A program made the position numbers and the translations under genes. The notes beneath the pieces are model-generated. The model was not told the DNA's origin. It did no database searches and saw only the letters and a program-made list of their open reading frames with translations. From Runella defluvii (lineage in GTDB: Bacteria; Bacteroidota; Bacteroidia; Cytophagales; Spirosomataceae), in contig NZ_JACIBY010000008.1 of assembly GCF_014195535.1 (NCBI RefSeq), positions 1 through 64,000 on the forward strand: a stretch of DNA of 64,000 nt. Direction: 5' to 3'. Of the stretch, positions 14,839 to 45,757 are shown in pieces. Each line of letters starts with the position of its first letter. Positions within the stretch are counted from its first letter, which is position 1.

Positions 14839-14878
14839 GCCTCGGCGAGGCGCCACGTTTGTAGCATCTCGCCGAGGC
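14839..14878. terminator. Hairpin after the S9 peptidase gene
   Basis: GCCTCGGCGAG (14839-14849) pairs exactly with CTCGCCGAGGC (14868-14878) over an 18-nt loop, 12 bp past the stop. There is no T-run after it, so its terminator role is uncertain. The GCCTCGSCGAGGC core and the neighbouring TTTGTAG word resemble the inner part of the MITE family, but the terminal repeats are missing. Confidence 0.5.
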
Positions 14879-31694: not shown

Positions 31695-31937
31695 GGGAGT
31701 TGTGTTGTTTTTTGCTCAAAACAACGACACGCTCTTTTCCCTTTCAAGCCTCAATAGACGAACAGCCATTTTCTTCGACAGACAACGATTTTCGCCCCAC
31801 TTTGTTAGGGGATTGTGGGTAGTTTGAGACTTTGGGCACCGCTTTTTGGAGCTAGGCTAACATGACTAGTATTTTTAGGTCGTGGGATTTTGTGTAGCTT
31901 GTTAGCTACAATAATCCATCAAAATAAAATTGGAGAA

Positions 31938-32120: not shown

Positions 32121-32129
32121 TTTCCAAAC

Positions 32130-32357
32130 CAGGTTGAACGCATTAAAATGTAGAATGGCTATTGATTGCTCCAGAGGAGCTACATCTTAGTAGAAAAATG
32201 AATGAAATCCCCCCAATCCCTATCTGGGCGGCCGACGTTCGGTGAAAGATGTCACCGAACGTCGGCCGCCCAGACGGGGCTTTTGGATGTTCTTTACCTC
32301 TTTTTTCTACTAAGATTTAGCCTCGCTGAGGCTACTTTTTTTAATGCGTTCAACCTG
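32130..32357. mobile_element. MITE-like palindromic element, copy 2, with 9-bp target duplication
   Basis: 228 bp bounded by CAGGTTGAACGCATTAAAA and its exact reverse complement TTTTAATGCGTTCAACCTG. The 9-bp TTTCCAAAC is found on both sides (32121-32129 and 32358-32366), as expected for a transposition event. Inside are GCTCCAGAGGAGC, a GCCTCGCTGAGGC hairpin, and a central 23-bp perfect stem (32223-32245 / 32252-32274, loop AAGATG) that is missing from copy 3. No coding capacity. It interrupts the MNT/HEPN remnant. Confidence 0.88.
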
Positions 32358-32472
32358 TTTCCAAACGCGACTGAGTCTTTTGATAAAAGTGATTGTAAGG
32401 TGGCACAAGAAAGTGTTTTTTACAGGCATATTGATTTTGAGCGGCTTGTGTAAATTAGGGTCGTTCTATTCA

Positions 32473-33261
32473 CTATTCTACCCAGAAACTTCCGACCGAA
32501 TAGGTCTTGGCCTGGCCGCTAATGAGGACGCGCTCTCCTTGGTCTTCGCAGTATAATTTTCCTAAACGCTCAGACACTTGTTGGGCGTAGAGCGACGTTT
32601 TCGACAACCTTTTTGCCCAAAAAGGAATCAACGAACAGTGCGCAGAACCCGTCACGGGGTCTTCTAAAATAGAGGCTTGGGGGGTAAAAAAACGAGAGAC
32701 AAAGTCGCAGGTATCACCTACGGCAGTGACGATGACACCGCCTGGGTCGAGGTTTATTTGGTCAAAAAAGTGCCTGTCGATGGTGATGCTTCTGATTTGG
32801 GTTTCATTTTCGTACACCAACACGTAGTCTCGGGCTTTGTAAATTTCTTGGGGTTGGAGGTTCAACGCCGCCGAAATCACCGAGGGCAAAGTGGCGGCTA
32901 CGGGCATTCGGGAAGGGAAGTCCAGTTGGTATAATTCCTGCTGCACCGACACGCGTAAATCGCCGCTCAGGGTTTCAAAAATAAGGGTGTCTTTGGGGTA
33001 GTTCAGACTAGTTTTTAGGCAATGCGCCGTAGCCAAGGTAGCGTGGCCACACAAATCCATTTCAATTTCGGGCGTAAACCATCGCAAATGAATTTTTTCG
33101 CCTTTGTCCACAAAAAAAGCGGTTTCGGCTACGGCATTTTCTTTCGCAATTTTCAGTAAAAGTTCATCGGGTAGCCACGTTTCAAGCGGCACTACGCAGG
33201 CGGGGTTTCCTCCAAAAAGAATATCGGTAAAAGCATCAACTTGATAAAGAGGCAATTTCAT
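32473..33261 (-). CDS. PhzF-family isomerase-like protein
   Basis: 262 residues, normal for the family. The two-lobed diaminopimelate-epimerase fold is shown by LYQVDAFTDILFGGNPACVV, the catalytic-Glu motif AVAETAFFV, LRWFTPEIEMDLCGHATLATAH, and in the second lobe FFTPQASILEDPVTGSAHCSL. PhzF itself isomerises a phenazine precursor, but most members, lacking the other phz genes as here, have unknown substrates. Cys in the GHAT block takes a position where true epimerases have a second acid/base residue. Confidence 0.92.
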   Translation of the reverse strand: MKLPLYQVDAFTDILFGGNPACVVPLETWLPDELLLKIAKENAVAETAFFVDKGEKIHLRWFTPEIEMDLCGHATLATAHCLKTSLNYPKDTLIFETLSGDLRVSVQQELYQLDFPSRMPVAATLPSVISAALNLQPQEIYKARDYVLVYENETQIRSITIDRHFFDQINLDPGGVIVTAVGDTCDFVSRFFTPQASILEDPVTGSAHCSLIPFWAKRLSKTSLYAQQVSERLGKLYCEDQGERVLISGQAKTYSVGSFWVE

Positions 33262-33301
33262 GGGGGGCGTTGGTTAGGGTGGAAGGGTTGTTATTTCTAC
33301 C

Positions 33302-33339
33302 TTTTGTCATGCCGTAGGCATCTAAAACCGCTGTTTTCA
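33302..33339. repeat. GTCATGCCGTAGGCAT repeat, copy 1
   Basis: Short palindrome ATGCC-GTA-GGCAT inside the longer unit TGTCATGCCGTAGGCATCTA..ACCGCTG. Further copies at 34221, 34501 and 34565 surround the toxin-antitoxin pair. Confidence 0.75.
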
Positions 33340-33418
33340 CGGGAGAGTCGTTATTCGCAAGATGGATGCGAGCGACTGCGTGGATATTGCGAACCTGAGT
33401 TTGAAGATATGGAGAAAA

Positions 33419-33448
33419 TTTGTAATAACTAGTTTTTTTGTATCTTTG
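33419..33448 (+). promoter_or_regulatory. Bacteroidota-type promoter of the PIN toxin-antitoxin pair
   Basis: TTTG (33419-33422), 18 nt, then TATCTTTG (33441-33448): a close match to the Bacteroidota housekeeping promoter (-33 TTTG, -7 TAnnTTTG). The antitoxin start at 33492 is about 40 bp downstream, a normal leader length. Confidence 0.55.
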
Positions 33449-33491
33449 GTTGTTGTATTAATTGGATAGGGTAAAAAATATCAATTGAGCC

Positions 33492-33722
33492 ATGACTGAG
33501 TTTAGAATAAGTGTAAAAAATGCCAAAACTGCTTCGGCTTTGCGTAAATTACTGAACGAGATGGATAATTTGGAGGTGGAGGAAATTGAGAATGAAAGGG
33601 TCGTGAAAGGGGAGGGCGATTTGCACGTTTTCTCCAATTTATGTGGGGCGTGGGATGACAAGACTCCAAGACTATCGGCTGATGAAATTCGTAAAACTGC
33701 ATGGCAAAGAAGAATAAGATAG
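33492..33722 (+). CDS. Antitoxin partner of PIN-domain toxin
   Basis: 76 residues. The sequence is charged and helical in the first half (FRISVKNAKTASALRKLLNE, LEVEEIENERVVKGEG) and ends with SADEIRKTAWQRRIR. Size, charge and the 22-bp overlap with the toxin gene fit a type II antitoxin; the C-terminal tail would bind the toxin. No clear AbrB, RHH or Phd motif is seen, so the DNA-binding class is open. An exact 32-bp copy of its 3' end plus the toxin start codon occurs at 34521-34552. Confidence 0.75.
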   Translation: MTEFRISVKNAKTASALRKLLNEMDNLEVEEIENERVVKGEGDLHVFSNLCGAWDDKTPRLSADEIRKTAWQRRIR

Positions 33723-34105
33723 TAATTCTTGATAGTGGTGTGGTGTTTGACTATTTGAAGGGGAGTGAGTCGGTGAGGTCTGAAATTTTTCAAGAAATTG
33801 GGCTTAACAACACTTTTGTCAGTACCATCACAATCCTTGAAACATATTATGGTATGTTAAAAAAGGAGGAAGCAGATACCCGAGCCTTCTTTCGTCAAAT
33901 TAGTCATTTCGTGATAGATAAAGAAACAAGCCAAAAAGCAATTGAGTTGATGAATGGCTACAGAAGCCAAAAAATTGGTTTGCCTGATTGCCTTATTGCT
34001 GCTACCTGCATCGTGAATAATGCACAACTCTTCACATACAATACTCAAGATTTCGACTATATCGAGGGAGTGAAGCTGTATAAGCCTAAAAAGAGAAATA
34101 GATAA
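33701..34105 (+). CDS. PIN-domain ribonuclease toxin (VapC-like)
   Basis: 134 residues, the usual VapC length. The acidic metal-site residues are all present: Asp in VILDSGVVFDYLKG, Glu in ITILETYYGML, Asp in IGLPDCLIAATC, and Asp in TYNTQDFDYI. VapC toxins cleave tRNA or rRNA and are held inactive by their antitoxin. It overlaps the antitoxin gene by 22 bp, and both are read from the promoter at 33419-33448. The pair looks intact. The gene is richer in A+T than the block to its right from 36.9 kb on. Confidence 0.9.
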   Translation: MAKKNKIVILDSGVVFDYLKGSESVRSEIFQEIGLNNTFVSTITILETYYGMLKKEEADTRAFFRQISHFVIDKETSQKAIELMNGYRSQKIGLPDCLIAATCIVNNAQLFTYNTQDFDYIEGVKLYKPKKRNR

Positions 34106-34220
34106 TAAAATATGTCATCTTAGGTTTACAGTAAGAGAATATAATTTTTTCAGTCGGAAGTCATGCGGTTTTGTCATTGGGTATTTAAGCTGTTCGGCAT
34201 GTTTAGTACCTCTCACCCAA

Positions 34221-34333
34221 TGTCATGCCGTAGGTATCTAAAATCGCTGTTTATTTGAAGATGAGTGCGGAATGTGAGATACAATTTATGTTGGAAGCCT
34301 TTTGATAGTCGTCATGGCTTGGGCTGCCCCGTC
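34221..34333. repeat. Composite repeat unit, copy A
   Basis: Begins with TGTCATGCCGTAGGTATCTA (34221-34240) and ends with GAAGCCTTTTGATAGTCGTC plus TGGCTTGGGCTGCCCCGTC (to 34333). The same order of both ends is found at 34565-34695. Between the two copies lies an inverted pair ATTCTCCCAATTAGCGTTAA / TTAGCGTTAATTTGGAGAAT (about 34364-34425). Confidence 0.65.
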
Positions 34334-34520
34334 TGAGTAATTGCGGGGAGTCGTGGCATCCTATTCTCCCAATTAGCGTTAATTAGGCTAGTCTATTAGC
34401 TGAATTAGCGTTAATTTGGAGAATGACAAAGTAAAACGCAATGGCTCACAGAAATTCCTACGAAATCAACTGGCCTTCCTAGCCCTCATCGTTTCTTTTT
34501 GTCATGCCGTAGGCATAGAT

Positions 34521-34552
34521 TATCGGCTGATGAAATTCGTAAAACTGCATGG
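34521..34552 (+). pseudogene. Antitoxin 3'-end fragment (exact 32-bp copy)
   Basis: These 32 bases are identical to 33673-33704, the last codons of the antitoxin up to and including the ATG of the toxin gene plus one base. Before it stands a GTCATGCCGTAGGCAT repeat (34501), after it unrelated sequence. It is a leftover of a second toxin-antitoxin copy or a recombination product. Confidence 0.8.
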
Positions 34553-34564
34553 AATAATAATCAT

Positions 34565-34695
34565 TGTCATGCCGTAGGCATCTAAAACCGCCGCGTTTTT
34601 GAAAATTATGATACACATGTCATGTGGGAACGTGCAATTCAGGGATTAGAATTAGAAGCCTTTTAATAGTCGTCACGGCTTGGGCCGCCCCCGTC
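34565..34695. repeat. Composite repeat unit, copy B
   Basis: Begins TGTCATGCCGTAGGCATCTA and ends with GAAGCCTTTTAATAGTCGTC plus CGGCTTGGGCCGCCCCCGTC, matching copy A at both ends with a slightly longer middle. Apart from these units, the antitoxin fragment and the inverted pair, 34106-34719 holds no gene that I can support. Confidence 0.65.
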
Positions 34696-34719
34696 ACAGA
34701 TGCTAGTTAGGGCGGGGTG

Positions 34720-35688
34720 TTAGATATTATTGATTCCTTTGTCATGAATGTATTTTACCAATTCGTCCATTTTTAAAACTTTATCATATTGGCTTTTTAC
34801 TTTTCCAAGTTTACAATCTTCCGTAATTAATTTTAAAAAATCATTAAAATCTGTATTTTCATTTGCCAATCGGTTGACGGTATCCCAGTCAATTTCTTGG
34901 TTAATTTTTGAAGGAAATAGTATTTCACTTTCAAAAATATTCTCAGAATTGAGTTGGATTATACCAATTCCAAAAGCGTTATTAAGACGCCTAACTTCAT
35001 CTTTAAAAGTCGGGTCATCATCGATGTTTAGGGTGACTAGATAGCCCTCATTGGCCCAGCTCGAATTTGAAACAGCTTGGAAGTAAGACTGTCTTAAATT
35101 CCCGAAGTTTAAAGTGACCTTTAACTCAAAAGAGAATAATTTTATAGAGGTGATGGATAACTGATTTTGGATTTCAAGAGTTTCGGGTTTATAATCACGA
35201 AATGGGAAATAAACCCCCACCAAACCAGGATGCAACCACTCATTTTACCCCTTAATTGCTTTGGTTGAAATTTCGTGAAAAATAGTCTTTAGATTTGCTT
35301 TAAAATGACTAGCACCATAGGCATAAGAAACCAATAAAGGATGTAAGTCTCGCTCGTTGAATCTTTTGGTTTCGATTTTGTCTTTTTGGGCAATTTCGGT
35401 ATCCTTTTGTTTCTGGACTTTTTGAAGATCTACCTGATTTTTGAGACGTCTTAAAAAAAACTGAGCAGGCCGTTCACTGGTTTGAATAACCATTGAGTTT
35501 TCTGCGTTATTGTTTATGTCAGTGTAGCAATAGGCGGCGATGGTCGCCCAAGGAGTTTTGCCTGTGGTTGTAAAATCGCCTAACGTGCCAAGTTCATTGG
35601 CTTTGTCCCAAATTTCTTTTGCCGAAAGCGGTGTTCCAACTTTTTCAATCGTTTTATCTATTACGTCCCAAAAGGTTGTTTTTGCCAT
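34720..35688 (-). pseudogene. HrgA-like HARE-HTH / PD-(D/E)XK nuclease, interrupted by one in-frame stop
   Basis: Two adjacent reading frames on the same strand and in the same phase are separated only by TAA at 35247-35245. The first 147 residues hold a HARE-HTH domain (FWDVIDKTIEKVGTPLSAKE, IWDKANELG, GKTPWATIAAYCYTDI) and the block RDLHPLLVSYAYGASHFKA. The second part resumes NEWLHPGLVGVYFPFRDY and contains a likely nuclease core, FSFELKVTLN with E-x-K, then SSWANEGYLVTLNID. In COG2958/HrgA proteins these parts form one continuous chain of about 320 residues. One base change (for example AAA, CAA or GAA to TAA) would explain the break. HrgA-type proteins are linked to restriction loci in Helicobacter. 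Confidence 0.82.
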
Positions 35689-35741
35689 TTATTTATAGGG
35701 GTCTTTAAATGTAAAAATAGAGGCTAGAAGTCTTTCAATCG

Positions 35742-36512
35742 CTATATTTTAAATCGTTCTTCGTTATGATATTTCAAAAATTCAACGTCAGGTAAAAAAC
35801 GTGAAGGAAGATTAATGGGTTGATTGTCAAACTTACCAATGAAATCAAAAGTATGTTGATTTTTGTCTTTTAGTATTAATGGTGAAACTTTTACCTTATA
35901 ATCAGGGGTAATTGTAATATATCCTGCTTCAAATGCTTTGTCGTGTAAAGCGTTTATTGCTATTCCATTTCTTGGATTTAGCCTGTTCTTTTCATCAATT
36001 CCCCACGGACGAATGTGGCCTGCTATTAAAAACTCAGGTTTATTAATTCCTGTAATACAGCAAGTATTATTGTACGCGGCTAGTATTGACCTTCTAAAAA
36101 ATGATTGGTTAACTCTTACCTTTACTACTTGCTCCCTTGTCTTTCCTTCTTTTAGTAGAGCATCTTCAGGAATCTCGTATAATTTTTCAACAGTTGTATG
36201 TTCAAATTGTGCTAACAATTTTTCGCTCTCATAGGGGAGTACATCCCAATTGTTGAAAAATTCATTCCAAATTTCATTATCGGCTTTACTTGCATTAGAA
36301 GCACCTTTTATACCTCTTGTTTTTAGACTTGGGTCTAAACTGGCAAAGTTTACTAATTTATATGCTACTGAACTTGGCGTTCTATTTATCAGGTTGGCAA
36401 GATTTATTACTTCTGAATTTAATCGATGCAAACGGCCAAAGGGTAGTGTGCAATACAAATTAATTGCCAATATTAATTCATCTCTTGTCCATAGTCTTTG
36501 CCCTTGTTTCAT
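35742..36512 (-). CDS. HNH endonuclease, restriction-type
   Basis: 256 residues. The N-terminal part looks DNA-binding and helical (WTRDELILAINLYCTLPFGR, RTPSSVAYKLVNFASLDP). The C-terminal HNH domain reads NNTCCITGINKPEFLIAGHI, RPWGIDEKNRLNPRNGIAIN and ALHDKAFEAGYITI: the His of AGHI, the Asn of NGIAL-type strand and the His of LHDKAF are the metal/catalytic residues. This arrangement is common in restriction-like HNH proteins that occur without a methylase. Its start overlaps the stop of the Zn-ribbon gene by 4 bp (ATGA), and the HrgA-like gene follows after 53 bp. Confidence 0.88.
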   Translation of the reverse strand: MKQGQRLWTRDELILAINLYCTLPFGRLHRLNSEVINLANLINRTPSSVAYKLVNFASLDPSLKTRGIKGASNASKADNEIWNEFFNNWDVLPYESEKLLAQFEHTTVEKLYEIPEDALLKEGKTREQVVKVRVNQSFFRRSILAAYNNTCCITGINKPEFLIAGHIRPWGIDEKNRLNPRNGIAINALHDKAFEAGYITITPDYKVKVSPLILKDKNQHTFDFIGKFDNQPINLPSRFLPDVEFLKYHNEERFKI

Positions 36513-36706
36513 AATAAAGCTCCATTATCAAACTCTTCATCATATTGCATTTCAAACTCATGCACACATTTTATATTGATACACTTATGGATTTGAGTTT
36601 GATATTTTATTTGGGATAGTTCTAATATAATCTCTGACCTTGAACCACAATTTGGGCAAGTTACTGGCTGGTCAGAATAGATAAAAATCTCAGGGAAGGA
36701 TTTCAT
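36509..36706 (-). CDS. Small zinc-ribbon protein
   Basis: 65 residues with two cysteine pairs, CPNCGSR near residue 17 and KCINIKC near residue 42, spaced as in a zinc ribbon, followed by an acidic tail (EFEMQYDEEFDNGALL). It overlaps the HNH nuclease gene by ATGA, so the two are translationally coupled. It may be a DNA-binding or accessory subunit of the nuclease; no specific family is recognised. Confidence 0.75.
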   Translation of the reverse strand: MKSFPEIFIYSDQPVTCPNCGSRSEIILELSQIKYQTQIHKCINIKCVHEFEMQYDEEFDNGALL

Positions 36707-36738
36707 TAGGAAGCAATGTTGGTCAAATTAGTAATTGC

Positions 36739-36945
36739 TTGAAAATCCTAAATGTAGAAAATTATTCAGAAGAATTAAAAAAACAGGGTTCTTTGACCGT
36801 AGAAACAATAATAAAACCCGATAAGTACAAAACTCGAATTTTTGTAAACCTTTCCAAGGTTCAAAACCTTGGAAAGGTTAGAATGATTACCCAATCGCCT
36901 CAGCACCCGTATCTTTCCAGCTACGAGAGTTGGCCGATTCAATGA
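36739..36945 (+). CDS. Doubtful short open frame or gene fragment
   Basis: From a TTG the frame reads [37 protein letters not shown], which has the composition of real protein, but after about 40 residues it enters a palindromic repeat (36847-36879) and then the antisense of the oxidoreductase gene. If it is a gene remnant, the repeat has cut it. No family recognised. Confidence 0.15.
36847..36879. terminator. Palindrome at the end of the sugar operon
   Basis: AACCTTTCCAAGGTT (36847-36861), loop CAA, AACCTTGGAAAGGTT (36865-36879), 8 bp beyond the stop of the minus-strand oxidoreductase gene. No T-run follows on the minus strand, so termination is uncertain; the hairpin could also protect the transcript's 3' end. 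Confidence 0.6.
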
Positions 36946-38047
36946 CCGCTTCGCATACTTTTTGAGTTTGGAGCGCGTCTCTGAACGTTGGGCCGCAAGG
37001 TGAACCGTCTTCGAGGCTTTTCAAGAAATCGGCTACTTGGTGGATAAAGCTGTGCTCGTATCCGATACCGCAGCCAGGAATCCACCAACGGTTCATGTAC
37101 GGTTGGTCGCCGTCGGTAACGTGGATGGAGCGCCAGCCGCGTACGATAGATTCGTCCTTGTGGTCGAAGTATTCGAGGCGGTTCAAATCGTGCAAATCCC
37201 AACGAATCGAAGCGTGTTCGCCGTTGATTTCAAACGTATAAAGGGCTTTGTGGCCGCGTGCATAGCGCGTTGACTCAAACAAGCCCAACGAACCATTGGC
37301 AAAATGACAGTGGAAAAGACAAGCGTCGTCGATGCCCACAGGCTCTACCTTGCCCGTAAGCTGGTGCATACGCTCTTTGACGAAGGTTTCGGTCATAGCC
37401 GAAACGTCGGTGATGGCGCCGTTGAGCCACATTGCGGTGTCGATACAGTGCGCTAATAAGTCGCCCGTTACGCCCGAACCCGCCGAGGATACGTCCATGC
37501 GCCACAGCCCCGTTCCTCCTTGCGGTAGATCGGCGTTGATGGTCCAGTCTTGTAGGAAGTTGGCGCGGTAGTGAAAAATCTTGCCCAATTTCCCCGAATC
37601 AATGATTTGTTTGGCCAACGTCACGGCAGGAATCCGACGGTAGTTGTACCAAACGGTGGTTTTAACGCCCGCTTTTTCGGCTGCTTCCACCATGGTTTCG
37701 CCTTCGGCCAAGGTGCGTGCAAGTGGTTTTTCGCAAAGAATCATTTTGCCCGCTGCCGCTGCTGCCAACGCGATTTCGGCGTGGCTGTCGTTGGGCGTAC
37801 AAATATCAACCGCGTCGATGTCATCGCGGGCAATCAATGCTTTCCAGTCGGTTTCGTACGATTCAAAACCCCACTGCTCGGCAAATGCCTGCACATTTTG
37901 AGGGTTACGTGAACACACCGCTTTCAAAACGGGGCGGTACTCCAATTCTGGGAAGAAATTGGCAATTCGATTATATCCGTTGGCGTGGGTACGGCCCATC
38001 AAACCCGTCCCAACTAATCCGATTCTGATTTCTTTTTTAGCTGACAT
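36887..38047 (-). CDS. Gfo/Idh/MocA-family NAD(P)-dependent sugar dehydrogenase
   Basis: 386 residues. Rossmann start [19 protein letters not shown], then [20 protein letters not shown] and the catalytic region [20 protein letters not shown], with the lysine of EKP. The C-terminal half ([32 protein letters not shown]) has the D-x-x-H type substrate residues. The family oxidises or reduces sugars, inositols and their 3-keto derivatives. It is the last gene of an eight-gene minus-strand run (45439 to 36887) rich in sugar-isomerase genes, which supports a role in a keto-sugar route; cofactor specificity cannot be read. Confidence 0.92.
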
Positions 38048-38064
38048 AGTTTTATAGTATTTTG

Positions 38065-38146
38065 AACCCCACCTCCTGTCCTCCTCCCCTGTGAGGGAGG
38101 AGGTAACTCTACCCCTCCCTCACAGGGGAGGGGCAGGGGTGGGGTT
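38065..38146. repeat. GC-rich imperfect palindrome in the sugar operon
   Basis: Left arm 38065-38103 (starts AACCCCACCTCCTGTCC) and right arm 38112-38146 (ends GGGGCAGGGGTGGGGTT) are near-complete reverse complements sharing CCCCTGTGAGGGAGG. It would give a long RNA hairpin between two genes of the operon. Confidence 0.85.
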
Positions 38147-38154
38147 AAGTTAAT

Positions 38155-39186
38155 TTATTCTACCCATCCGTGTGCTTTGCGAACCTTAATCATGGCCGCG
38201 AGGATGTCGTTCCACGTTTGTTGGTTGTTCATGACCGCGTTCGGGAACATACAGCCATCCCAGCAAATGTGCTTGAATGCCTTGGTCAACTCACCGCTTT
38301 CGTTGCGAAGCCAAAGTCCCGCGTCGTTGGTGATGTCGAGTTTACCGTTCGGGTCGGTGGCTTGGCAGTGGCGACCCGTTTTGTCGTGTGAGCCTGAACC
38401 AAACACGGTGCCGTCGTTTTGGGCAACGTGGAAGTCGATGGTCCACGGACGCAAGGCGGCGGTCAATTTGCGCAAACCTTCGAGGAAGGTTTCGCGGTCG
38501 CCCCATTGGAAATCTTCGGGCAACACGCGGTGTTCTGGCGCATTGTAACCCAACAAATACAAAGTCGTGTGCGACATATCGGCTTGGAAACCAATATTTT
38601 TGCGGTCAACGGCCTCTAGCGTGTCGAGCATGTATTTCCACGAGTGCATCCCGCCCCAGCAGATTTCTCCTTCGGCGGCTAGGCTTTCACCAAAATCAGC
38701 GGCTACGTCGCAGGCTTCGCGGAACGTTTGGGCAATGAGCTTGGTGTTTCCTGCGGGGTCAAGTGCCCAATCGTGCGGGCTACTTGCTGAGTCGATACGA
38801 ACAATGCCGTTCGGACGCAGTCCCCACTCGCGGAGTTTTTGACCGATGTGGCATGATTTACGCACCATTTCCACAAATTCGGCACGTTGTTCTTTGGTAC
38901 CCATCGCAGGGCCACCCCAGATAGGTGCCACCAAGCTACCTACTTCGAGGCCGTGCTTGGCTACTTTGTCGGCGAGGCGCTTGATGCCGTCGTCCGATAT
39001 ATCGAGGTCGTAGTGAGGGTCAAAAAGACCAACGTCCACGCCGTCAAATTTTACGCCGTCCACTTCTGCTGCCGCAGTCATTTCGAGCATGGTGTCAAAT
39101 GCGATTGCAGGCTCTGAATCTGGGCCTTTACCCACAATCCCAGGCCAAGTGGCATTGTGGAGTTTTGGAAAATTGTTTTCTGCCAT
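38155..39186 (-). CDS. TIM-barrel sugar phosphate isomerase/epimerase (AP2 family), first of three
   Basis: 343 residues of the xylose-isomerase-like TIM barrel. The opening [21 protein letters not shown] and the blocks [68 protein letters not shown] and [20 protein letters not shown] hold the acidic and His residues that bind the divalent metal. Longer than the other two homologs in the cluster (275 and 283 residues). Relatives include sugar isomerases, IolE/IolI dehydratases and 3-keto-glycoside lyases, so substrate assignment is open. Confidence 0.85.
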
Positions 39187-39210
39187 TGTTAGAAAAGGTT
39201 TAATTTTGGT

Positions 39211-39312
39211 AAACCTGTAAGGTTTTCAAAACCTTACAGGTTTGATTAGTTTGCATTTAAAACGTATGAATAGAACCTAAAACCTATAAGATTTCAAAAA
39301 CCTTATAGGTTT
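39211..39312. repeat. Two tandem AACCT..AGGTT hairpins in the sugar operon
   Basis: Hairpin 1: AAACCTGTAAGGTTTT (39211-39226) with AAAACCTTACAGGTTT (39228-39243). Hairpin 2: AAACCTATAAGATTT with AACCTTATAGGTTT (39280-39312). Both lie in the 138-bp gap between the cupin-like gene and the isomerase gene and belong to the same hairpin class as 36847-36879. Confidence 0.85.
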
Positions 39313-39324
39313 AGGGTAGTTTAA

Positions 39325-40545
39325 TTACTTCACTACGACCAAATCAGGGTTATTAGGCCCGAAGTGCTTCAACATCACGATCGGATCCGTTGACGAGTAG
39401 TTGGTGATGGTAACACCTGCTTTCGCTGCGTTTTCAGTGACAAAAAACTCGTCGTTGGTCAATTGTCCGTAACGAATCAAGGCAGGAGTTTCGATGTTCC
39501 ACACGCCCATTTTACCGTGTCCTTGCATCATGATTAAGCCGTACGCCGCGTTGTCGGTGATGGTGACAGTAGCGCCTGGCAAAACGGTTAGTTCTTTGGC
39601 ACTGTATGCCTCAGATCGGTAACAAATCCAGTTTTCTACGTATCCTTGGGCTTGCATTTCTTCCAACGGATGCACGGGTCTAGGCATCATAAAGTGATTG
39701 GCGGCAAAATTGGGGTCAACATTGGCTTCCCAGTCAATCACCGAAACCAACTCATCATAATCACCCATTTTGTCTTGTGGTGTGCCATTCCAAAGCAATT
39801 CTTCTGGTACAATTGCTTCATTCACAAGGCTTTGGTACATGGCAAAAATATCGGAAGCCTTTTGTGGCTCGTAGGTGCACAAGCTACCTGGCGCGTGCAA
39901 AATTCCTGGAGGCACGTCCCAGCCTGTGCCTGGTTCTAATTTATAAGCCGACGAGAAATTGGTGATTTTGTTGTCACCTTTATTGAAGTCCATCAAGCAT
40001 TGCTTGATTTGTTCTTTGGTGGTACCTGGCGTAATTCCGAAGAAAGTATAGGGGAAATCACCACCGTGGTTGTTGAGTTGAGGAGGGAAATAATAGGCTT
40101 CGGGTTTACCATTTTGCCCTACCAAAGCCGCCTTTTCGTCGTTGTGGTGGATATGGTGCGGTAGTGGCCCCATGTTGTCAAAGAATTTTGAATACATCGG
40201 CCAGCTTTGGTATTCGTCCCAAAGACGGTCGCCAACGATTTCGCCTTTTAATTCTTCAATGACGTCTTTCAACAACACTTGTTCGGTTTGTCCACCTTCT
40301 TCAAACACCACTTTGCTCAAACCTTCGTGTTCGCCCGTAAGTGGGCCGTTTTTGGCTGGGGTGGTAGAAGAAAGCCAACGCTCGTCGATACCACCACGAA
40401 CACCACCTAATACATAATAATCGTCGGGGTGAAGTTTGATACGACGACCAGGAACGCAAAATGAGCGCGGAACCCACGTGGGGGCTAAACGTAAAATACC
40501 TTGTCCTTGCTCTAACGCTTTTGCTGCTATACTTGAATTTGCCAT
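39325..40545 (-). CDS. Cupin-type protein, mannose-6-phosphate isomerase-like
   Basis: 406 residues. The metal-binding cupin part shows MGPLPHHIHHNDEKAALVGQ, PEAYYFPPQLNNHGGDFPYTF and GTGWDVPPGILHAPGSL, the last resembling the type I phosphomannose isomerase block with its His and Pro. A second beta domain follows (LTVLPGATVTITDNAAYGLI, MMQGHGKMGVWNIE). True PMI sequences have additional Gln/His/Glu metal ligands that I cannot all place, so a sugar isomerase role is likely but not certain. It is within the sugar operon, after DUF4432. Confidence 0.6.
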   Translation of the reverse strand: MANSSIAAKALEQGQGILRLAPTWVPRSFCVPGRRIKLHPDDYYVLGGVRGGIDERWLSSTTPAKNGPLTGEHEGLSKVVFEEGGQTEQVLLKDVIEELKGEIVGDRLWDEYQSWPMYSKFFDNMGPLPHHIHHNDEKAALVGQNGKPEAYYFPPQLNNHGGDFPYTFFGITPGTTKEQIKQCLMDFNKGDNKITNFSSAYKLEPGTGWDVPPGILHAPGSLCTYEPQKASDIFAMYQSLVNEAIVPEELLWNGTPQDKMGDYDELVSVIDWEANVDPNFAANHFMMPRPVHPLEEMQAQGYVENWICYRSEAYSAKELTVLPGATVTITDNAAYGLIMMQGHGKMGVWNIETPALIRYGQLTNDEFFVTENAAKAGVTITNYSSTDPIVMLKHFGPNNPDLVVVK

Positions 40546-40612
40546 TTTTTCAGGGGGTGCAATTGCACTTGTTAAGAGTTAATTAATGAAAGTTGTGTGT
40601 GTATAATTAGGG

Positions 40613-41680
40613 TTAACCAACAAAGTCGCGAAGCGCGGCGGAGTCGGTAATGATTTCAATTTCAAGGGTGTAACTGCGCTTTTCTCCTGGCGCTAGTTCA
40701 ATGAGCGTTTGTTGTGCTCGTGCCGCCGCTTGCCCAATCGGAGGGTGGGTGCCAGGTTCTAAGCCTGTGACGTACTCGCCTTTGCCCCAGTGCTGCCAGT
40801 TGGTGAGCCAAGGCAGTTGAGCTTTGGGAAAACGAACTGCTACGGCAAAACCGAGCGCTTCGTTGTAAACTCCGCAGCTTGCTTGTCCGTTGGCGTCAGC
40901 GTCGATGTCGATAAAGGCGGCCTCTTCGCCAAAACCACTGTGGGCTTCGAGCGGCGCGGGACAGCGGCGAAAATCGTTGTCGTTATTAAAAATAGGATTT
41001 TGCGGATTGCCATCGCGCGATTGCCATTTGCCTTGCCACACCAAGCGCGCTCCTTCGTCCACCAGTGGCCAACCAAAGTTGCAGTGGTAAAGTAACATGT
41101 GCGGAGCGGGAGTATTGGCGCGGTTGATGACTTCGTCGTGGATTTTGATGGTCGGTTGTCCGAGCGTTCCCGAAATCGTCCGACGCAGTTCTAACACGGG
41201 GCCAAAAACGCGGGCTTGTTTGATAATCCCCGTAATGCTCATGTCCAACATGCCCGCCGCAGGGTCGGGCTGAACGATGGATTCAATTTCGGCGGGAATA
41301 TTGCTGATTTCGCCGTGAAGACCGCGCTGACCGTATTCGTCCGACTCAGGTCCACCGACGTGGCTCAAGCCGCACGTGGTAACTAAACCTCCGCCGAACG
41401 TCCGAAGCCAATCAATGCCACCGTCCGAAAAAGGCTGAGGCGGCGTAACGCCCGCATGACTCAACCAAGCCAAGCCGTGTTGGTTGTAGAACGCCTCGGC
41501 GATGTCCATGGCACGGTCAAGCACCACTTTGTACCGCAAACCCGTTCCCGTATTTATCCACGCAATGCGTGTACCACGTCCTGCGCCGTTGTCGAGTACG
41601 GAGGTTTCGATGCCTCCCCACTGCGCCGCGTGCGACAGTTTGTTGGTCCAAGGTTGCGTGTTTGTTTCGTTTGTGTTCAT
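40613..41680 (-). CDS. DUF4432-family protein (aldose 1-epimerase-like)
   Basis: About 355 residues from the ATG at 41680, which leaves a 5-bp gap to the alpha/beta-hydrolase stop; the earlier in-frame start at 41707 would overlap that gene. The galactose-mutarotase-like beta sandwich is indicated by YKVVLDRAMDIAEAFYNQHG, LAWLSHAGVTPPQPFSDGG, LRTFGGGLVTTCGLSHVGGP, RGLHGEISNIPAEIE and MLLYHCNFGWPLVDEG. These have the His and acidic residues found in DUF4432/YphB-type epimerases. It would interconvert anomers of a sugar intermediate in the cluster (inference). Confidence 0.8.
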   Translation of the reverse strand: MNTNETNTQPWTNKLSHAAQWGGIETSVLDNGAGRGTRIAWINTGTGLRYKVVLDRAMDIAEAFYNQHGLAWLSHAGVTPPQPFSDGGIDWLRTFGGGLVTTCGLSHVGGPESDEYGQRGLHGEISNIPAEIESIVQPDPAAGMLDMSITGIIKQARVFGPVLELRRTISGTLGQPTIKIHDEVINRANTPAPHMLLYHCNFGWPLVDEGARLVWQGKWQSRDGNPQNPIFNNDNDFRRCPAPLEAHSGFGEEAAFIDIDADANGQASCGVYNEALGFAVAVRFPKAQLPWLTNWQHWGKGEYVTGLEPGTHPPIGQAAARAQQTLIELAPGEKRSYTLEIEIITDSAALRDFVG

Positions 41681-41685
41681 AAATA

Positions 41686-42498
41686 TTACGTATGCTGACT
41701 TAACCAATTCTTCACCCGTGGGTTAAAGTCGTCCAAGTGCTCAAAATGGAAAATATGTCCCGCTTTTTCGTACAAATACAATTCAGCGTTAGGAATCGCA
41801 TTGGTCACTTCTTCGGCCATCCAAACGGGCGTAAAGATGTCTTCGCGGCCACCAATCACAAGCGTCGGTTGTGTAACGTTCGGCAAATCGGCCAAGGCAT
41901 TGTGCGAAATACAGGCGGCGGCTTGTCCTTCCAATCCGTGCAACGGCTGAGGGAACGGGTCGAGGCCCGCTTGGGCGCGTCCTGCTTCCAAGTCTGCCGC
42001 GATGGCTTCGTTGTCCCACGACGATTTTGAATAAATCAATTGCTGAATGTACAAGCTAAATTCCTCGGGACGGAAGCGCGCTTTGCAGTGCATCATGTGG
42101 GTAAAAATGGCTTTGGCCGCGTTGTCGCAGCGTGCCCACGGACACATCAGTACCAGCGAACGTACCTTTTTGGGGTGACGAACGGCGAGTTGTTGCGCAA
42201 TCGTGCTTCCCATTGAGCAGCCCACAACGTGCACATTGTCCAGACCTAACGCGTCGAGCAGCCCCGCATAATCATCGGCCATTTGGGCGGTAGAATAGGG
42301 GCCTTGTGGCTTGTCGGTTTTGCCTACGCCACGGTTGTCACCAATGATGCACCGAAAATCGGTTGCCCAGTACGAGGCGTGGGGCTCCCACACACCGCCT
42401 GCTGCCGTGATTCCCATGATGAGGAGCAACGGCTCGGCGTTGGCCGCACCCCGTTCTTCGTAGTAAAAATTGATACCGTTGGTTTGAACAAAAGGCAT
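41686..42498 (-). CDS. Alpha/beta hydrolase
   Basis: 270 residues, cytoplasmic (no signal peptide). Canonical fold with oxyanion region LLLIMGITAAGGVW, nucleophile elbow VVGCSMGSTIAQQLA, acid in IGGREDIFTPVWMAEE and histidine in EKAGHIFHFEHL. Family members include esterases, lactonases (3-oxoadipate enol-lactonase type) and C-C hydrolases. In this sugar cluster a lactonase acting after a dehydrogenase step is an attractive but unproven role. Start codon is separated from the next upstream gene by 144 bp that contain a palindrome. Confidence 0.88.
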   Translation of the reverse strand: MPFVQTNGINFYYEERGAANAEPLLLIMGITAAGGVWEPHASYWATDFRCIIGDNRGVGKTDKPQGPYSTAQMADDYAGLLDALGLDNVHVVGCSMGSTIAQQLAVRHPKKVRSLVLMCPWARCDNAAKAIFTHMMHCKARFRPEEFSLYIQQLIYSKSSWDNEAIAADLEAGRAQAGLDPFPQPLHGLEGQAAACISHNALADLPNVTQPTLVIGGREDIFTPVWMAEEVTNAIPNAELYLYEKAGHIFHFEHLDDFNPRVKNWLSQHT

Positions 42499-42533
42499 AT
42501 CGTTGACGATTGGTTACGAGACTTTGCTTTTTT

Positions 42534-42627
42534 ACCACATAGCTCACAGAGATTTTTCACATAGAAAACCTAGGAGGATTTAGCTATCTGTGATTCTATG
42601 TGTTAATTCTATTGTGCTCTATGTGGT
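42534..42627. repeat. ACCACATAG..CTATGTGGT inverted-repeat element in the sugar operon
   Basis: Left end ACCACATAG (42534-42542) and right end CTATGTGGT (42619-42627) are reverse complements, with inner imperfect pairs (CTCACAGAG and CTATCTGTGATT; CACATAG and CTATGTG). It lies in the only large gap of this part of the operon. The sequence ACCACAAAGTACTCAAAG at 28459 is of the same general type. Confidence 0.75.
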
Positions 42628-42642
42628 TAAATCAGTTTAAAG

Positions 42643-43470
42643 TTATTTTAGATTGGGGATTAAATCGTTTAAAATCCAACGTCCGTCGTGGAGGGTCACA
42701 AAATCGGGGTCGTCGAGGGCTTCTTCGCCTTCGTCTTCGCAGATAATCCAACCCGAATAATTGATGTCTTTCAACCACTGCGTAACGCCGAGCAAATCCA
42801 CTTTTCCGCGTCCCATCAACGTAAATTCAGGATTCCCGTCCCAGTCTTTGTAGTGAACGTGGTTGATAAGCGGGGCGTATTCTTTCATTTTGGCGAGCGG
42901 GTCCATGTCACCATTGATAATGTGACCCACGTCTGGCGTCCAGCCCGTCACGGTAGCATCCAACGACTCCAACACGATTTTGTAATCTTCTTCAGTGCGG
43001 ATGATGGACGAATGCGGCGAATTGGGGTGAAAACTGCAAGGAACGCCCAAGGCATTGGCGCGGGCCGAAACGGTGTTGACAATATTCACCAAGCTTTTCT
43101 GACGCGCAGCTAAGTCGTGGCGACCCGTCGGAATTTGTACAGTATTTAAAACCGCTCCAGGAAAACGTTGCAACAAAGCGATGGCGTTGTCGGCGATGCG
43201 GCGTTCGTCTTCGCTTTCTCCGTTACCGTTCCACTCCAAGGCCAGCGCCACGGCGGCTAGTTCGATGCCTTGTTCTTTCAATTTAGCTTCCAACAGGTCG
43301 GGGTTTACCAAATCGCCCATCCACGTAAAAATGGGCTGAATTCCCGTAAAACCTGCTTTAGAAATAATTTCAATCATGTGGCCCAAACGCCCTTGGTGGG
43401 TGGTGCCGTTTCCGCTCATAAACCAAGTATAAACCTCAGAACCGAAACGAAAAGGAAGTGATGCTGACAT
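42643..43470 (-). CDS. TIM-barrel sugar phosphate isomerase/epimerase (AP2 family), second of three
   Basis: 275 residues. Opens FGSEVYTWFMSGNGTTHQGR and contains AGFTGIQPIFTWMG, ELAAVALALEWNGNGESE, PCSFHPNSPHSSII, WTPDVGHIINGDMDPLAKMK, LINHVHYKDWDGN and GWIICEDEGEEALDDP: the expected His/Asp/Glu metal ligands at the strand ends. This pattern resembles inosose dehydratase-like and 3-keto-sugar-acting members more than xylose isomerase. Starts 11 bp after the ThuA stop, so it is tightly coupled. Confidence 0.87.
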   Translation of the reverse strand: MSASLPFRFGSEVYTWFMSGNGTTHQGRLGHMIEIISKAGFTGIQPIFTWMGDLVNPDLLEAKLKEQGIELAAVALALEWNGNGESEDERRIADNAIALLQRFPGAVLNTVQIPTGRHDLAARQKSLVNIVNTVSARANALGVPCSFHPNSPHSSIIRTEEDYKIVLESLDATVTGWTPDVGHIINGDMDPLAKMKEYAPLINHVHYKDWDGNPEFTLMGRGKVDLLGVTQWLKDINYSGWIICEDEGEEALDDPDFVTLHDGRWILNDLIPNLK

Positions 43471-43481
43471 AAAATGATGGG

Positions 43482-44555
43482 TTATTTTTTCTTGAATAGT
43501 TCACCTGGCATGATTAGCGAATTCCAATCGGCCAAATCGGCTGGTTTTACTTTTGTTTTGTAACCGTCAAAATTGAATGGGGTTGGCTGGTAAGGGCCGA
43601 CAAATTCAATGGGATTGTTGGCTTTGATTTCTTGCTCCATGCCTATTGCCCAAAGGGCGGCGTTGATTGCCATGCGACGGAATCCTTCATTCAATAAATC
43701 TTCAGAAGCTCCGTGGGTGGTAGTAAAAGCACGCCCCGTTGGCCCAGAATCGACTGAATAGTTTTTAATCCACGCAACAGGAAGCAACTCTTTGGTAGGG
43801 TCGGGTTCGGAAGTGGGCGTCATGCCATTAAGCACTTGCCCACGTGCCAAAGTGGTAGCTCCGTTGGGATAGGCGGTATAGCCACCCGACTGCACCCAAA
43901 CGTCTTTGACACCGCGCAAAATAGGATGTTGTTTTTGGGCGTCTTCCAACAGTAGTTTTGAGGATTGTTTGTGGTTGGTGCCGTAGTGAGACACCCATGT
44001 TTCTCCCAACACCAATTCACCAAAACCGTCTTTCCACGCACTTTTCTCCCCTTTGTAGTTCCACGAATAATGCTCCCATTTGGCATTGCCTTTGTTGTTA
44101 AAAGCATGGGTAGATGTCCGAAAAGCAACAATAGGGCCTCCGCGACGAATGTAAGCGTCGAAGTGCTGCATTTCTTCGTCATCGAAATTAGAAAAGCGGG
44201 TAAACAACACCATCAAATCGGCCTTGTCCAACGCCGCCAATCCTTTGAGGTTGGAGCTGCCTGGTAAAATGTATCCGTTGTCGTCAAGTCCAAAAATAAC
44301 CGTGCAAGTAAACCCGTAGCGTTTGGCCAAAATACGGGCCAAGGCAGGCAACGACTCTTCGCTGCGGTATTCGTGGTCGGTGGTAATAAAAACAATATTT
44401 TTTCCTCGCCCTGGGCCTTTTTCTCCCTTATAAACAATTTGGTAGGCCGACATTGGATGCGGGCCTTTGGCTGAGCGAGTGGGTTTGTCGAAGGTGAACC
44501 CAAATGCGCCGAAAAGCAAGCTGCACCAAACTATCAAAAGACCGCTTTTTTTCAT
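43482..44555 (-). CDS. Exported ThuA-domain protein (trehalose-utilization type)
   Basis: 357 residues with a signal peptide (KSGLLIVWCSLLFGAFGF). The class I glutamine-amidotransferase-like ThuA fold is seen in NIVFITTDHEYRSEESLPAL, ADLMVLFTRFSNFDDEEMQ, YIRRGGPIVAFRTSTHAF, WVSHYGTNHKQSSKL and GRAFTTTHGASEDLLNEGFR. In rhizobia ThuA works with ThuB, a Gfo/Idh/MocA-type dehydrogenase, on 3-keto derivatives of trehalose and other disaccharides. Here a Gfo/Idh/MocA gene lies in the same run, which supports similar chemistry, though this protein is exported. Confidence 0.88.
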   Translation of the reverse strand: MKKSGLLIVWCSLLFGAFGFTFDKPTRSAKGPHPMSAYQIVYKGEKGPGRGKNIVFITTDHEYRSEESLPALARILAKRYGFTCTVIFGLDDNGYILPGSSNLKGLAALDKADLMVLFTRFSNFDDEEMQHFDAYIRRGGPIVAFRTSTHAFNNKGNAKWEHYSWNYKGEKSAWKDGFGELVLGETWVSHYGTNHKQSSKLLLEDAQKQHPILRGVKDVWVQSGGYTAYPNGATTLARGQVLNGMTPTSEPDPTKELLPVAWIKNYSVDSGPTGRAFTTTHGASEDLLNEGFRRMAINAALWAIGMEQEIKANNPIEFVGPYQPTPFNFDGYKTKVKPADLADWNSLIMPGELFKKK

Positions 44556-44587
44556 AGTAAATAGCGTTTCAGGGCATTGTTTTTTAA

Positions 44588-45439
44588 TTACAAATTATGC
44601 TTAATAGACATTTCTCGAATAAACGTCAGACCGTTTTCGGCAATGTGCCAAGGGTCGTTGTATTCGCGCCATACCCCAATCGCATTGGCAAAATCAGGGT
44701 CGTTACGAGAAAATGCTTCAATCGTCAACCAGCCTTTGTAGCCAACCGCCGCCAGTCCCGCAAACGCATTGTCCCAAGGAATGTGGCCATCGCCTGGTGT
44801 GCCACGGTCGTTTTCGCTAATGTGGACGTGACTCAAGTAAGGTGCGATGGTACGAATGGCCGACTCGTATTTTTTCTCTTCGATGTTGGCATGGTGCGTG
44901 TCGAACATGGCCCGTACGTTGGGGTGGTTGGTCAATTGCACCAAGTTGGCAAGGTGCTCCATCGTATTGCAGAGGTAGCACTCAAAACGATTGAGCGCTT
45001 CGGGCGCAAGAATTAAATTGGCTTGCGCGGCGTATTCGCCCGCGGCATGAAGTACTTCAGCGGCGCGCGCAAATTCATCTGCGGAAGCTGGACGAGACAC
45101 AAAATGCGCGTGGGCTGAGTGAAAAGGTCCGCAAAGAACTTCGGCGTTTAAGTCGTGCGCGCGGTCAATCACCCACTTGAGTTGGTCGAGGGCTTGGGCA
45201 CGTACCGTCGCCGATTCGCTCACGGGATTGGTATCGGGGCTAACCACCGTTACGGCTGTTACGCCTAAACCTAGTTCGCGCGAGCGATTTCCTACACGTT
45301 TGTAAGCGTCTTCGTCGGGAGCGCCAATAAAATATTCGACGCCGTCGTAGCCAATTTCTTTGAGGCGTTCGATGATAGGAAATAATTCGTCAGACATTCC
45401 CGCCGACCAAGCCAATACATTAAAGCCAATTTTATTCAT
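44588..45439 (-). CDS. TIM-barrel sugar isomerase/epimerase (hydroxypyruvate isomerase-like), third of three
   Basis: 283 residues. Opens IGFNVLAWSAGMSDELFPII and contains IGYDGVEYFIGAPDEDAYKR, AEVLCGPFHSAHAHFVS, LILAPEALNRFECYLCNT, VRAMFDTHHANIEEKKYESA, LSHVHISENDRGTPGDGHIP and GWLTIEAFSRNDPDF. Glu152-region, Asp of MFDTHH, His of HVHISE and Glu of TIEAF are the metal ligands typical of D-psicose/tagatose epimerases and hydroxypyruvate isomerases. As the first gene of the run it probably follows the operon promoter, which I could not place. The gene begins 36 bp from the MITE copy 3. Confidence 0.87.
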   Translation of the reverse strand: MNKIGFNVLAWSAGMSDELFPIIERLKEIGYDGVEYFIGAPDEDAYKRVGNRSRELGLGVTAVTVVSPDTNPVSESATVRAQALDQLKWVIDRAHDLNAEVLCGPFHSAHAHFVSRPASADEFARAAEVLHAAGEYAAQANLILAPEALNRFECYLCNTMEHLANLVQLTNHPNVRAMFDTHHANIEEKKYESAIRTIAPYLSHVHISENDRGTPGDGHIPWDNAFAGLAAVGYKGWLTIEAFSRNDPDFANAIGVWREYNDPWHIAENGLTFIREMSIKHNL

Positions 45440-45474
45440 AATTCTTTTTGAGCAGTTTTTTGTCTGTGTAATCG

Positions 45475-45602
45475 CAGGTTGAACGCATTAAAATAAAATG
45501 TGACTATTTATTGCTCCAGAGGAGCCAAATCTTCGTAGAATTTTACATTTTTCTACAAAGGTTTTGCCTCTCCGAGGCTCTTTTTTTAATGCGTTTAACC
45601 TG
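45475..45602. mobile_element. MITE-like palindromic element, copy 3, shortest, with 9-bp target duplication
   Basis: 128 bp from CAGGTTGAACGCATTAAAA to TTTTAATGCGTTTAACCTG (one mismatch between the ends). The flanks carry the perfect direct repeat GTGTAATCG (45466-45474 and 45603-45611). Internal hairpins GCTCCAGAGGAGC and GCCTCTCCGAGGC, and the pairing words CTTCGTAGAA / TTCTACAAAG, make the whole element foldable into one long stem. It holds no open frame, so it must be moved by a transposase encoded elsewhere. Confidence 0.9.
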
Positions 45603-45605
45603 GTG

Positions 45606-45757
45606 TAATCGTTAACTGTTATTTGTATAACTGTTATCTGTTAGTCGTGTGATTACTAGGTATTTAACATTGATTATGGTATTGCGCTAGTGAAGTTTTT
45701 TGATAACTGTTAACGGTTAACAGATAACCAATCACCGATAACGGTTAACCAATAACA
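45606..45757. repeat. GTTAAC/GTTATCTGTTA word-repeat array
   Basis: Left block (45611-45645) repeats GTTAACTGTTAT and ATAACTGTTATCTGTTA; right block (45702-45757) has the complementary words GTTAACGGTTAACAGATAAC and CGATAACGGTTAACCAATAA. A unique middle of about 55 bp separates them, so the array is an inverted pair. It lies directly after MITE copy 3 and ends 4 bp from the stop of the DUF1080 gene. Confidence 0.8.

What the first reader, a model, noticed from the sequence alone, without database searches (positions are those of the whole stretch)
32121..45611. Mobile palindromic element family (MITE) with perfect 9-bp target duplications
Three related elements (10683-10866, 32130-32357, 45475-45602) share the 19-bp ends CAGGTTGAACGCATTAAAA and the same internal hairpins. 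Copies 2 and 3 have perfect but different 9-bp flanking repeats, TTTCCAAAC and GTGTAATCG. That combination is direct evidence of transposition. The elements carry no gene, fold almost end to end, and vary in length through central insertions. I know of no named family with these ends. The transposase that moves them is unknown; a 9-bp duplication is used by several IS families, so the source cannot be assigned from this window.
Basis: seen in the sequence. Interest (0 to 1): 0.85.

Follow-up and report, generated by a model that had tools for sequence, protein, structure and literature searches.

The report
Orphaned ISAs1-type mini-transposon carrying REP-like hairpins
The window holds short gene-less jumping elements whose ends match a known bacterial transposon family (ISAs1) that a search did not find in this genome, and whose insides are mostly built from another kind of hairpin repeat; it is a real mobile element of a broadly familiar kind.

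Summary
Copy 1 is a decayed relative with neither. Of 55 distinct copies collected from this and six other genomes, 18 have an exact 9-bp duplication, 9 more match 8 of 9, and none has an exact one of another length from 5 to 13. A sister genome has the empty site of copy 3; copy 2 lies in what is there an open HepT-like gene. The transposase family can be assigned: related genera carry ISAs1-family insertion sequences with the same ends, which also make 9-bp duplications. No ISAs1 transposase was found in this genome, so the copies look orphaned. Inside, most copies of 100 bp or more have the tag NTTNGTAG behind a hairpin on both arms; the same repeat type lies free in the genome and beside some IS200-like transposase genes. 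In genus g33 one of three copies carries a g33-type repeat. So: an ISAs1-derived MITE with a REP-like interior, a new variant of a known kind. How the interior arose is inference.

The parts
32121..32129 (.). left TSD of copy 2, TTTCCAAAC
   Evidence: a single TTTCCAAAC at this site in sister genome G010
32130..32148 (+). left TIR of copy 2 (19 bp)
32168..32193 (+). left hairpin module GCTCCAGAGGAGC-TACAT-CTTAGTAG
32224..32273 (.). central 50-bp hairpin of copy 2
   Evidence: fold
32307..32334 (-). right hairpin module TAGCCTCAGCGAGGCTA-AAT-CTTAGTAG; on the + strand a stem plus T-run that scores as terminator-like
32339..32357 (-). right TIR of copy 2
32358..32366 (.). right TSD of copy 2
45466..45474 (.). 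left TSD of copy 3, GTGTAATCG
   Evidence: a single copy in G010
45475..45602 (.). copy 3, 128-bp element (TIRs 45475-45493 and 45584-45602)
45513..45538 (+). left hairpin module of copy 3
45553..45578 (-). right hairpin module of copy 3, GCCTCGGAGAGGC-AAAAC-CTTTGTAG
45603..45611 (.). right TSD of copy 3
10684..10866 (.). copy 1, decayed relative (modules at 10721-10746 + and 10818-10843 -); no TSD
14839..14864 (+). free hairpin module outside the three elements (GCCTCGGCGAGGC...TTTGTAG)
44588..45439 (-). gene (PF01261 TIM barrel) whose start codon lies 35 bp from copy 3

Best explanation
These are MITEs derived from an ISAs1-family insertion sequence. SHOWN: inverted ends of about 18-19 bp, CAGGTTNAACGCATTWAAA; 9-bp target duplications; dispersed copies; an empty site; and the same ends on ISAs1-family elements of related genera, which also make 9-bp duplications. 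INFERRED: an ISAs1 transposase supplied in trans bound the two ends, cut, and joined them to a 9-bp staggered target; the transposase source was later lost, or visited only briefly, because none was found in this genome. The interior is a separate thing: in most copies of 100 bp or more, two REP-like stem-loop modules (hairpin plus NTTNGTAG) face each other, usually around a central hairpin. Such modules also flank some IS200-like Y1 transposase genes and lie free in the genome. That they were built into, or captured by, the ISAs1-ended element is inferred. They seem not to be needed for movement, since a 74-bp copy without the tag has an exact TSD.
For: Ends and TSDs: 18 of 55 distinct copies have an exact 9-bp TSD, 9 more match 8/9; exact duplications of length 5-8 or 10-13: 0; mismatched-flank control: 0 of 2970 at 8/9 or 9/9. 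Empty site of copy 3 in G010 with one GTGTAATCG; one own-genome copy sits in the arm of an older copy. Parent: in 7 of 16 loci read outside G000 and G003, all 7 in genus g5, the ends run straight into a transposase-like frame. The one I tested against families (L134, G203) matches NCBIfam ISAs1 with 291 bits (cut-off 70) and Pfam PF13808 and PF01609; the G216, G217, G221 and G225 frames match that protein at 72-85% over their first stretch. Six left-end/right-end contig pairs of g28 genomes G081 and G079 share exactly 9 bp; all six lie within one genome, none among the 40 between-genome pairs of the 80 compared; 2 of 20 ends could not be classed and were dropped. G203 and G080 two-ended elements have 8/9 duplications. 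Orphan state: ISAs1 protein search, 0 in G000 and G003; PF01609, 0 in G000. Interior: tag on both strands in 42 of 49 copies of 100 bp or more, against 7 of 2450 shuffled interiors; same module type beside Y1 genes.
Against: 28 of the 55 copies have fewer than 8 of 9 TSD matches, so many are old or rearranged (one, L130, is exact once its end is moved by one base). ISAs1-ended elements G217 (1180 bp) and G086 (1183 bp) show no clear duplication. No ISAs1 element with these ends was seen in the window's own genus; the ISAs1 proteins there are 40-43% identical over most of the query, or fragments, and their ends were not recovered. The open-frame G203 copy is interrupted by another insertion, and the g28 evidence rests on contig ends that show only the outer part of each element. 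G003 has one PF01609 match, in a 226-aa frame (L127), that the ISAs1 search did not find and whose ends I could not recognise. Copies are related by descent, so the tag count is not 49 independent events, and it counts the tag, not the hairpin. The two Y1 proteins tested fall below the RAYT cut-off (33.8 and 29.8 against 80); modules were seen near only 9 of 40 Y1 loci.
Confidence: 0.85

Rival explanations
1. The elements are REP-like clusters (BIME-like) moved by the Y1 transposases, and the outer inverted repeats are part of that system.
For: Modules of the same type flank Y1 genes and lie free in the genome: 61 GCCTC-stem matches in G000, of which by my reading 16 lie in catalogued elements and 3 in one-ended remnants.
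Against: Exact 9-bp duplications in one register only; Y1 enzymes are not known to make staggered duplications (recalled). Copies of 63-75 bp lack the tag (0 of 6), yet one (L045) has an exact 9-bp TSD. In the 40 Y1 loci held (126 kb) there is one match to the TIR with up to 3 mismatches, a lone one about 750 bases before the Y1 match in L158.
Confidence: 0.05
2. A DDE transposase of another family moves these ends, and the match to ISAs1 ends is convergence.
For: No ISAs1 transposase was found in G000 or G003, where most catalogued copies are; G003 has one other PF01609 match; other 9-bp families exist (recalled).
Against: An 18-bp match plus the same duplication length. Of 16 loci read from 222 family genomes outside G000 and G003, the seven with a transposase-like frame next to the end all have the same ISAs1-type frame; the other nine were read by eye and not scanned for transposases. 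PF01609, which covers several DDE families (recalled), gives 0 in G000.
Confidence: 0.07
3. The elements are kept as regulatory RNA or terminator structures and are spread mainly by copying of genome segments, not by transposition.
For: Strong fold; the right hairpin plus T-run scores as terminator-like in copies 2 and 3 (one site each, shuffled means 0.6 and 0.3).
Against: Different flanks with exact duplications, an empty site in G010, and insertion into a coding sequence and into an older copy.
Confidence: 0.03

Closest known systems
ISAs1 family of insertion sequences (NCBIfam NF033564)
   Same: Same ends and 9-bp duplication as ISAs1-family elements in genera g5 and g28. Other ISAs1 elements of the bacterial family start CAGGGC and have 10-bp duplications.
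   Different: The window's elements have no transposase gene, and none was found in their genome.
QMITE2 of Coxiella burnetii (PMC5896051, part of the abstract and passages seen)
   Same: A MITE of 150-190 bp with 7-11-nt direct repeats that holds a GTAG-tagged REP.
   Different: There the REP is described as the target of IS1111. Here two modules face each other, the tag lies 3' of the hairpin after a spacer, and the stems differ between genera.
BrickBuilt MITE of Porphyromonas gingivalis (PMC4596501, passages seen)
   Same: A Bacteroidota MITE with internal tandem repeats and TIRs close to those of full insertion sequences; compare the 459-bp copy L061.
   Different: Its TIRs match IS5-family elements, and the passages call its flanking duplications possibly not canonical TSDs.
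GTAG-tagged REPs and RAYTs (PMC3733652, PMC6006769, passages seen)
   Same: Short hairpins tagged by GTAG, in clusters, beside Y1 transposase genes.
   Different: The REP search rule of PMC6006769 puts GTAG 0-2 nt 5' of the hairpin; here it is on the 3' side after several bases. The two Y1 proteins tested match the IS200 model, not the RAYT model.

Membership tests
MITE | short, non-coding, terminal inverted repeats | tested here: met
   63-459 bp with TIRs; the only ORFs of 60 aa or more overlapping copy 2 are short frames without a transposase look; no family search was run on them
MITE | target site duplication and dispersed copies | tested here: met
   18 of 55 exact 9-bp TSD; empty site
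MITE | ends shared with an autonomous transposon | tested here: met
   in related genera; not found in the own genome
ISAs1 family (as derivative) | ISAs1 transposase between the ends | tested here: met
   For a relative (L134): 291 bits against cut-off 70. The window's own elements lack the gene, so they are derivatives, not members
ISAs1 family (as derivative) | target duplication of 8-10 bp (range recalled) | tested here: met
   9 bp in MITEs and CAGGTT-ended ISs, 10 bp in CAGGGC-ended ISs
canonical GTAG REP | GTAG 0-2 nt 5' of the hairpin | tested here: not met
   tag lies 3' of the hairpin after a spacer; hence REP-like only
RAYT (NF047646) | linked transposase above the RAYT cut-off | tested here: not met
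   two proteins tested: 33.8 and 29.8 bits against 80; IS200 model met, 77.3 and 70.9 against 55
trans-mobilisation by ISAs1 | movement of the MITE by the enzyme | not testable with these tools
   needs a transposition assay

The most novel reading that the evidence does not exclude
ISAs1-ended MITEs in this bacterial family repeatedly take up the local Y1-transposase-linked hairpin repeat, so that one element is built from two unrelated transposition systems and the MITE re-disperses the other system's repeats. In this genus the MITE carries GCCTC-stem modules of the type free in the genome; in genus g33 one copy (L130) carries the g33-type ATCCC-stem/TTGGTAG module, a second (L131) has yet other stems, and a third (L129) has no tag.
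Probability: 0.4. Interest if true: 0.6.

Novelty: new variant of a known kind. Interest (0 to 1): 0.42.

Why it matters
It assigns an unnamed MITE family to its transposase family and shows spread of copies in a genome where no such transposase was found. It also gives a case where a DDE-type mini-transposon is built from REP-like repeats that accompany a second, single-strand type of transposase. That turns the question of how REP-like repeats are carried around in Bacteroidota into something testable.

Tried and rejected
PF01609 in G000 and G003 to find a resident parent: none in G000, one match in G003 (L127, 226-aa frame) without recognisable ends. Rfam on the window at gathering scores: no match. 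Automatic search for paired ends around 31 loci (L127 plus the 30 loci): exact 10-bp duplications for CAGGGC-type ISAs1 elements L181, L188, L200 (18/18 ends) and L196 (17/18 ends); L194's flanks are masked; L185 has perfect ends but no duplication; for the CAGGTT type only the G217 pair without a duplication (L175); more were found. Naming the organisms by a genome-contig scan with the g5 protein: no relative confirmed. Empty site of copy 1: the spot in G010 holds a different stretch of about 585 bp, inconclusive. A clean empty site for copy 2 is blurred by later deletions in G000. Papers: searches for ISAs1 with MITE, Runella with insertion sequence or MITE, Bacteroidetes MITEs, RAYT/REP in Bacteroidetes, REP plus MITE plus RAYT. 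The rows listed showed no title on an ISAs1-derived MITE; the listings were capped at 10-20 rows, so this is a statement about those rows only.
Full report
CHECK OF THE OBSERVATION. Copies 2 and 3 are as described: 19-bp inverted ends and exact 9-bp duplications TTTCCAAAC and GTGTAATCG. The ends are far above chance: 4 matches with up to 3 mismatches, mean 0.03 in shuffles. Copy 1 is a relative by its hairpins, but its ends have no match at 3 mismatches and its flanks agree at 2 of 9 positions.

FAMILY SIZE AND TSDs. The own genome (G000, 7.99 Mb, 50 contigs) has 51 end matches with up to 3 mismatches against 5 for the reversed control, and 73 BLAST pieces to the 128-bp copy. Of 39 genomes searched as 'relatives' (G000 among them), 9 have an end match with at most 1 mismatch; G003 of the same genus has 73, G000 38, the other seven 1 to 4 each. 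From the loci fetched (not every G003 end was fetched) I extracted 55 distinct two-ended copies: 21 in G000, 29 in G003, 1 each in G005, G007, G136, G137, G138. The 9-bp register stands alone: mean flank identity 0.70 at length 9 and 0.30-0.37 at the other lengths from 5 to 13. 18 copies are exact, 9 more match 8 of 9, no other length has an exact case, and 0 of 2970 mismatched flank pairs reach 8 of 9. The other 28 copies score below 8; one of these (L130, G137) becomes exact if its end is moved by one base. Targets of the good copies are AT-rich.

PROOF OF MOVEMENT. In sister genome G010 the copy 3 site is empty, with one GTGTAATCG; the joined-flank query matched at 97% across the junction, and at 83% in G007. 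In G010 the copy 2 site holds one TTTCCAAAC inside an open frame that matches Pfam HepT-like (69.9 bits, cut-off 23.5) next to an MNT-like frame; both fall below the stricter NCBIfam HepT and MntA cut-offs (31.3 and 29.2 against 60). In the window both are broken: copy 2 sits in the HepT-like frame, and deletions lie in both genes. One own-genome copy (L062) lies inside the arm of an older, decayed copy of the same family, its duplication CAATAAATA being part of that arm. One insertion is shared by G000 and G003 with the same flanks (L064/L121), so some copies are old.

THE PARENT. The exact 18-base ends were sought in 222 genomes of the bacterial family; 15 have them, G000 and G003 included. 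Of 16 loci read outside those two, seven, in five g5 genomes, lead from the end into a transposase-like frame (L134, L136-L139, L144, L147), for example MNWEAFFADVPDFRLNRR in L134. L130 and L131 are MITEs; the others are decayed or lone matches, read by eye only. The L134 frame is an ISAs1-family transposase (291.3 bits, cut-off 70; PF13808 103 bits, PF01609 41 bits). Two-ended elements: 1180 bp with a broken frame in G217 and 1183 bp in G086, neither with a clear duplication; 1225 bp in G080 with flanks matching 8 of 9, its frame broken by stops; and G203, about 2.5 kb, with an open frame, a second insertion inside it, and flanks matching 8 of 9. In g28 genomes G081 and G079, contigs break inside the element. 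Of 20 ends fetched, 10 were classed left, 8 right, and 2 dropped as unclear. Comparing all 80 left-right pairs at lengths 8 to 11 gave six matches, all at 9 bp and all within one genome. These contig ends show only the outer part of each element; the left ones begin the ISAs1 frame (78-79% identity over 27-29 residues for the G081 ends listed). G082 of g28 has 249 end matches with up to 2 mismatches; in the capped list many lie about 120-140 bases from a contig start, and 3 of 3 loci read there lead into sequence that is not the transposase.

ORPHAN STATE. The ISAs1 protein finds 39 of 222 genomes, but not G000, G003 or G010. PF01609 finds nothing in G000 and one match in G003. G000 is 99.99% complete by the tool's figure, but a missing or collapsed stretch cannot be excluded. 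Within the genus other ISAs1 proteins exist (40-43% identity in G001, G005, G006, G008); I could not recover their ends.

THE INTERIOR. Of 49 copies of 100 bp or more, 48 have the tag NTTNGTAG on at least one strand and 42 on both, against 7 of 2450 shuffled interiors with both; copies of 63-75 bp have none (0 of 6). In the copies of this genus the tag as a rule follows a short hairpin (sequences, read by eye). The short copies look like fusions of the two hairpins, yet L045 (74 bp, G007) has an exact 9-bp duplication, so the ends seem to suffice. The same module type occurs beside Y1 transposase genes: at L158-L161 (4 of 16 loci in G000 and G003) and within about 250 bp of the gene at L253, L254, L255, L256 and L259 (5 of 24 loci in six other genomes). 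Single modules farther off or of doubtful kind in L252, L263 and L269 are not counted. Six other own-genome loci had 3 modules in 36 kb (one of the six, L048, has an element remnant). The L161 module differs from the right arm of copy 3 at 2 of 26 bases. Two Y1 proteins tested (L160, L161) match IS200 above and RAYT below its cut-off. Their YxxNQxxHHxK motif resembles 'subclass 1.2' of PMC6006769, said there to be generally without typical terminal IS200 structures (passages seen). The TIR itself is not seen around the Y1 genes: one lone match with 3 mismatches in 40 loci.

LINEAGE MATCH. GCCTC-stem/TTTGTAG modules: 61 in G000, 66 in G003, 7 in G005, 41 in G010, and 0 in three g33 and two g5 genomes. 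In G000, by my reading of that list, 16 lie in catalogued two-ended elements, 3 in one-ended remnants and 42 elsewhere, some in tandem arrays. ATCCC-stem/TTGGTAG modules: 1, 1 and 4 in three g33 genomes, 0 in the other six. The one in G137 is inside its MITE (L130), and two of the four in G138 lie just after a Y1 gene (L255). So one g33 MITE carries a g33-type module. Against this, the other g33 copies do not show such a match: L131 (G138) has different stems that I did not find beside the Y1 genes read, and L129 (G136) has no tag. The evidence for repeated capture is thus one matched case of three. G010 has 41 free or embedded modules but only 2 MITE ends at 1 mismatch, so the modules do not depend on the MITE.

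MECHANISM. Shown: ends, duplication length, empty site, ends shared with ISAs1 elements. Inferred: transposition in trans by an ISAs1 enzyme, loss or transience of that enzyme, and acquisition of the REP-like interior by insertion, recombination or formation of ends around an existing cluster. Copy 2 is nearest to L062 (97.2%), and a G003 copy (L109) is 93.9% to L062, so this subtype resembles the G003 copies; copy 3 has the other right-arm type. Copies 32130, L062, L079 and L082 of the first subtype have exact TSDs, but other copies with a similar arm do not (L052 3/9, L064 6/9, L047 3/9), so a late arrival of that subtype is only a suggestion.

COMPARISON. See Closest known systems. MITEs with a REP (QMITE2) and MITEs with internal tandem repeats (BrickBuilt) are in print, so the parts are known kinds. 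The combination of ISAs1 ends and Y1-linked modules that differ by genus is what I did not see in the rows listed.

VERDICT. A real MITE family, parent family assigned, no parent found in its host, with an unusual composite interior. The organism's name was not established by any tool; a Runella-like member of the Spirosomataceae is my guess from genome sizes and kinship.

Noticed in passing
window 31890-32453: Remains of an MNT/HepT-like pair: open frames in G010, broken here by copy 2 and by further deletions.
   Followed up: partly
window 45603-45750: AT-rich GTTAAC-type palindromic repeats (AACGGTTAACAGATAACC and similar) that also match other places in this and related genomes.
   Followed up: no
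L159 1092-2792, L160 663-1426: Dense direct and inverted arrays of GGGGCGTAGCCCC-type hairpin modules around IS200-like Y1 transposase genes whose motif resembles a subclass said in PMC6006769 to lack typical terminal structures.
   Followed up: partly
L134, L137, L138 (genus g5): ISAs1 copies contain a short GC-rich sequence like GGGCCGCCGGAGCGG at different spots; possibly another small repeat.
   Followed up: no
G082 (genus g28): L205, L214, L221: 249 CAGGTTNAACGCATTNAA ends with up to 2 mismatches; the 3 loci read lead into sequence that is not the transposase, perhaps a very abundant derivative element.
   Followed up: no
L061 2788-3246 (G000:C4:264787-265245): A 459-bp copy with six copies of one hairpin module in tandem at 58-59-bp spacing; TSD 8/9.
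   Followed up: partly
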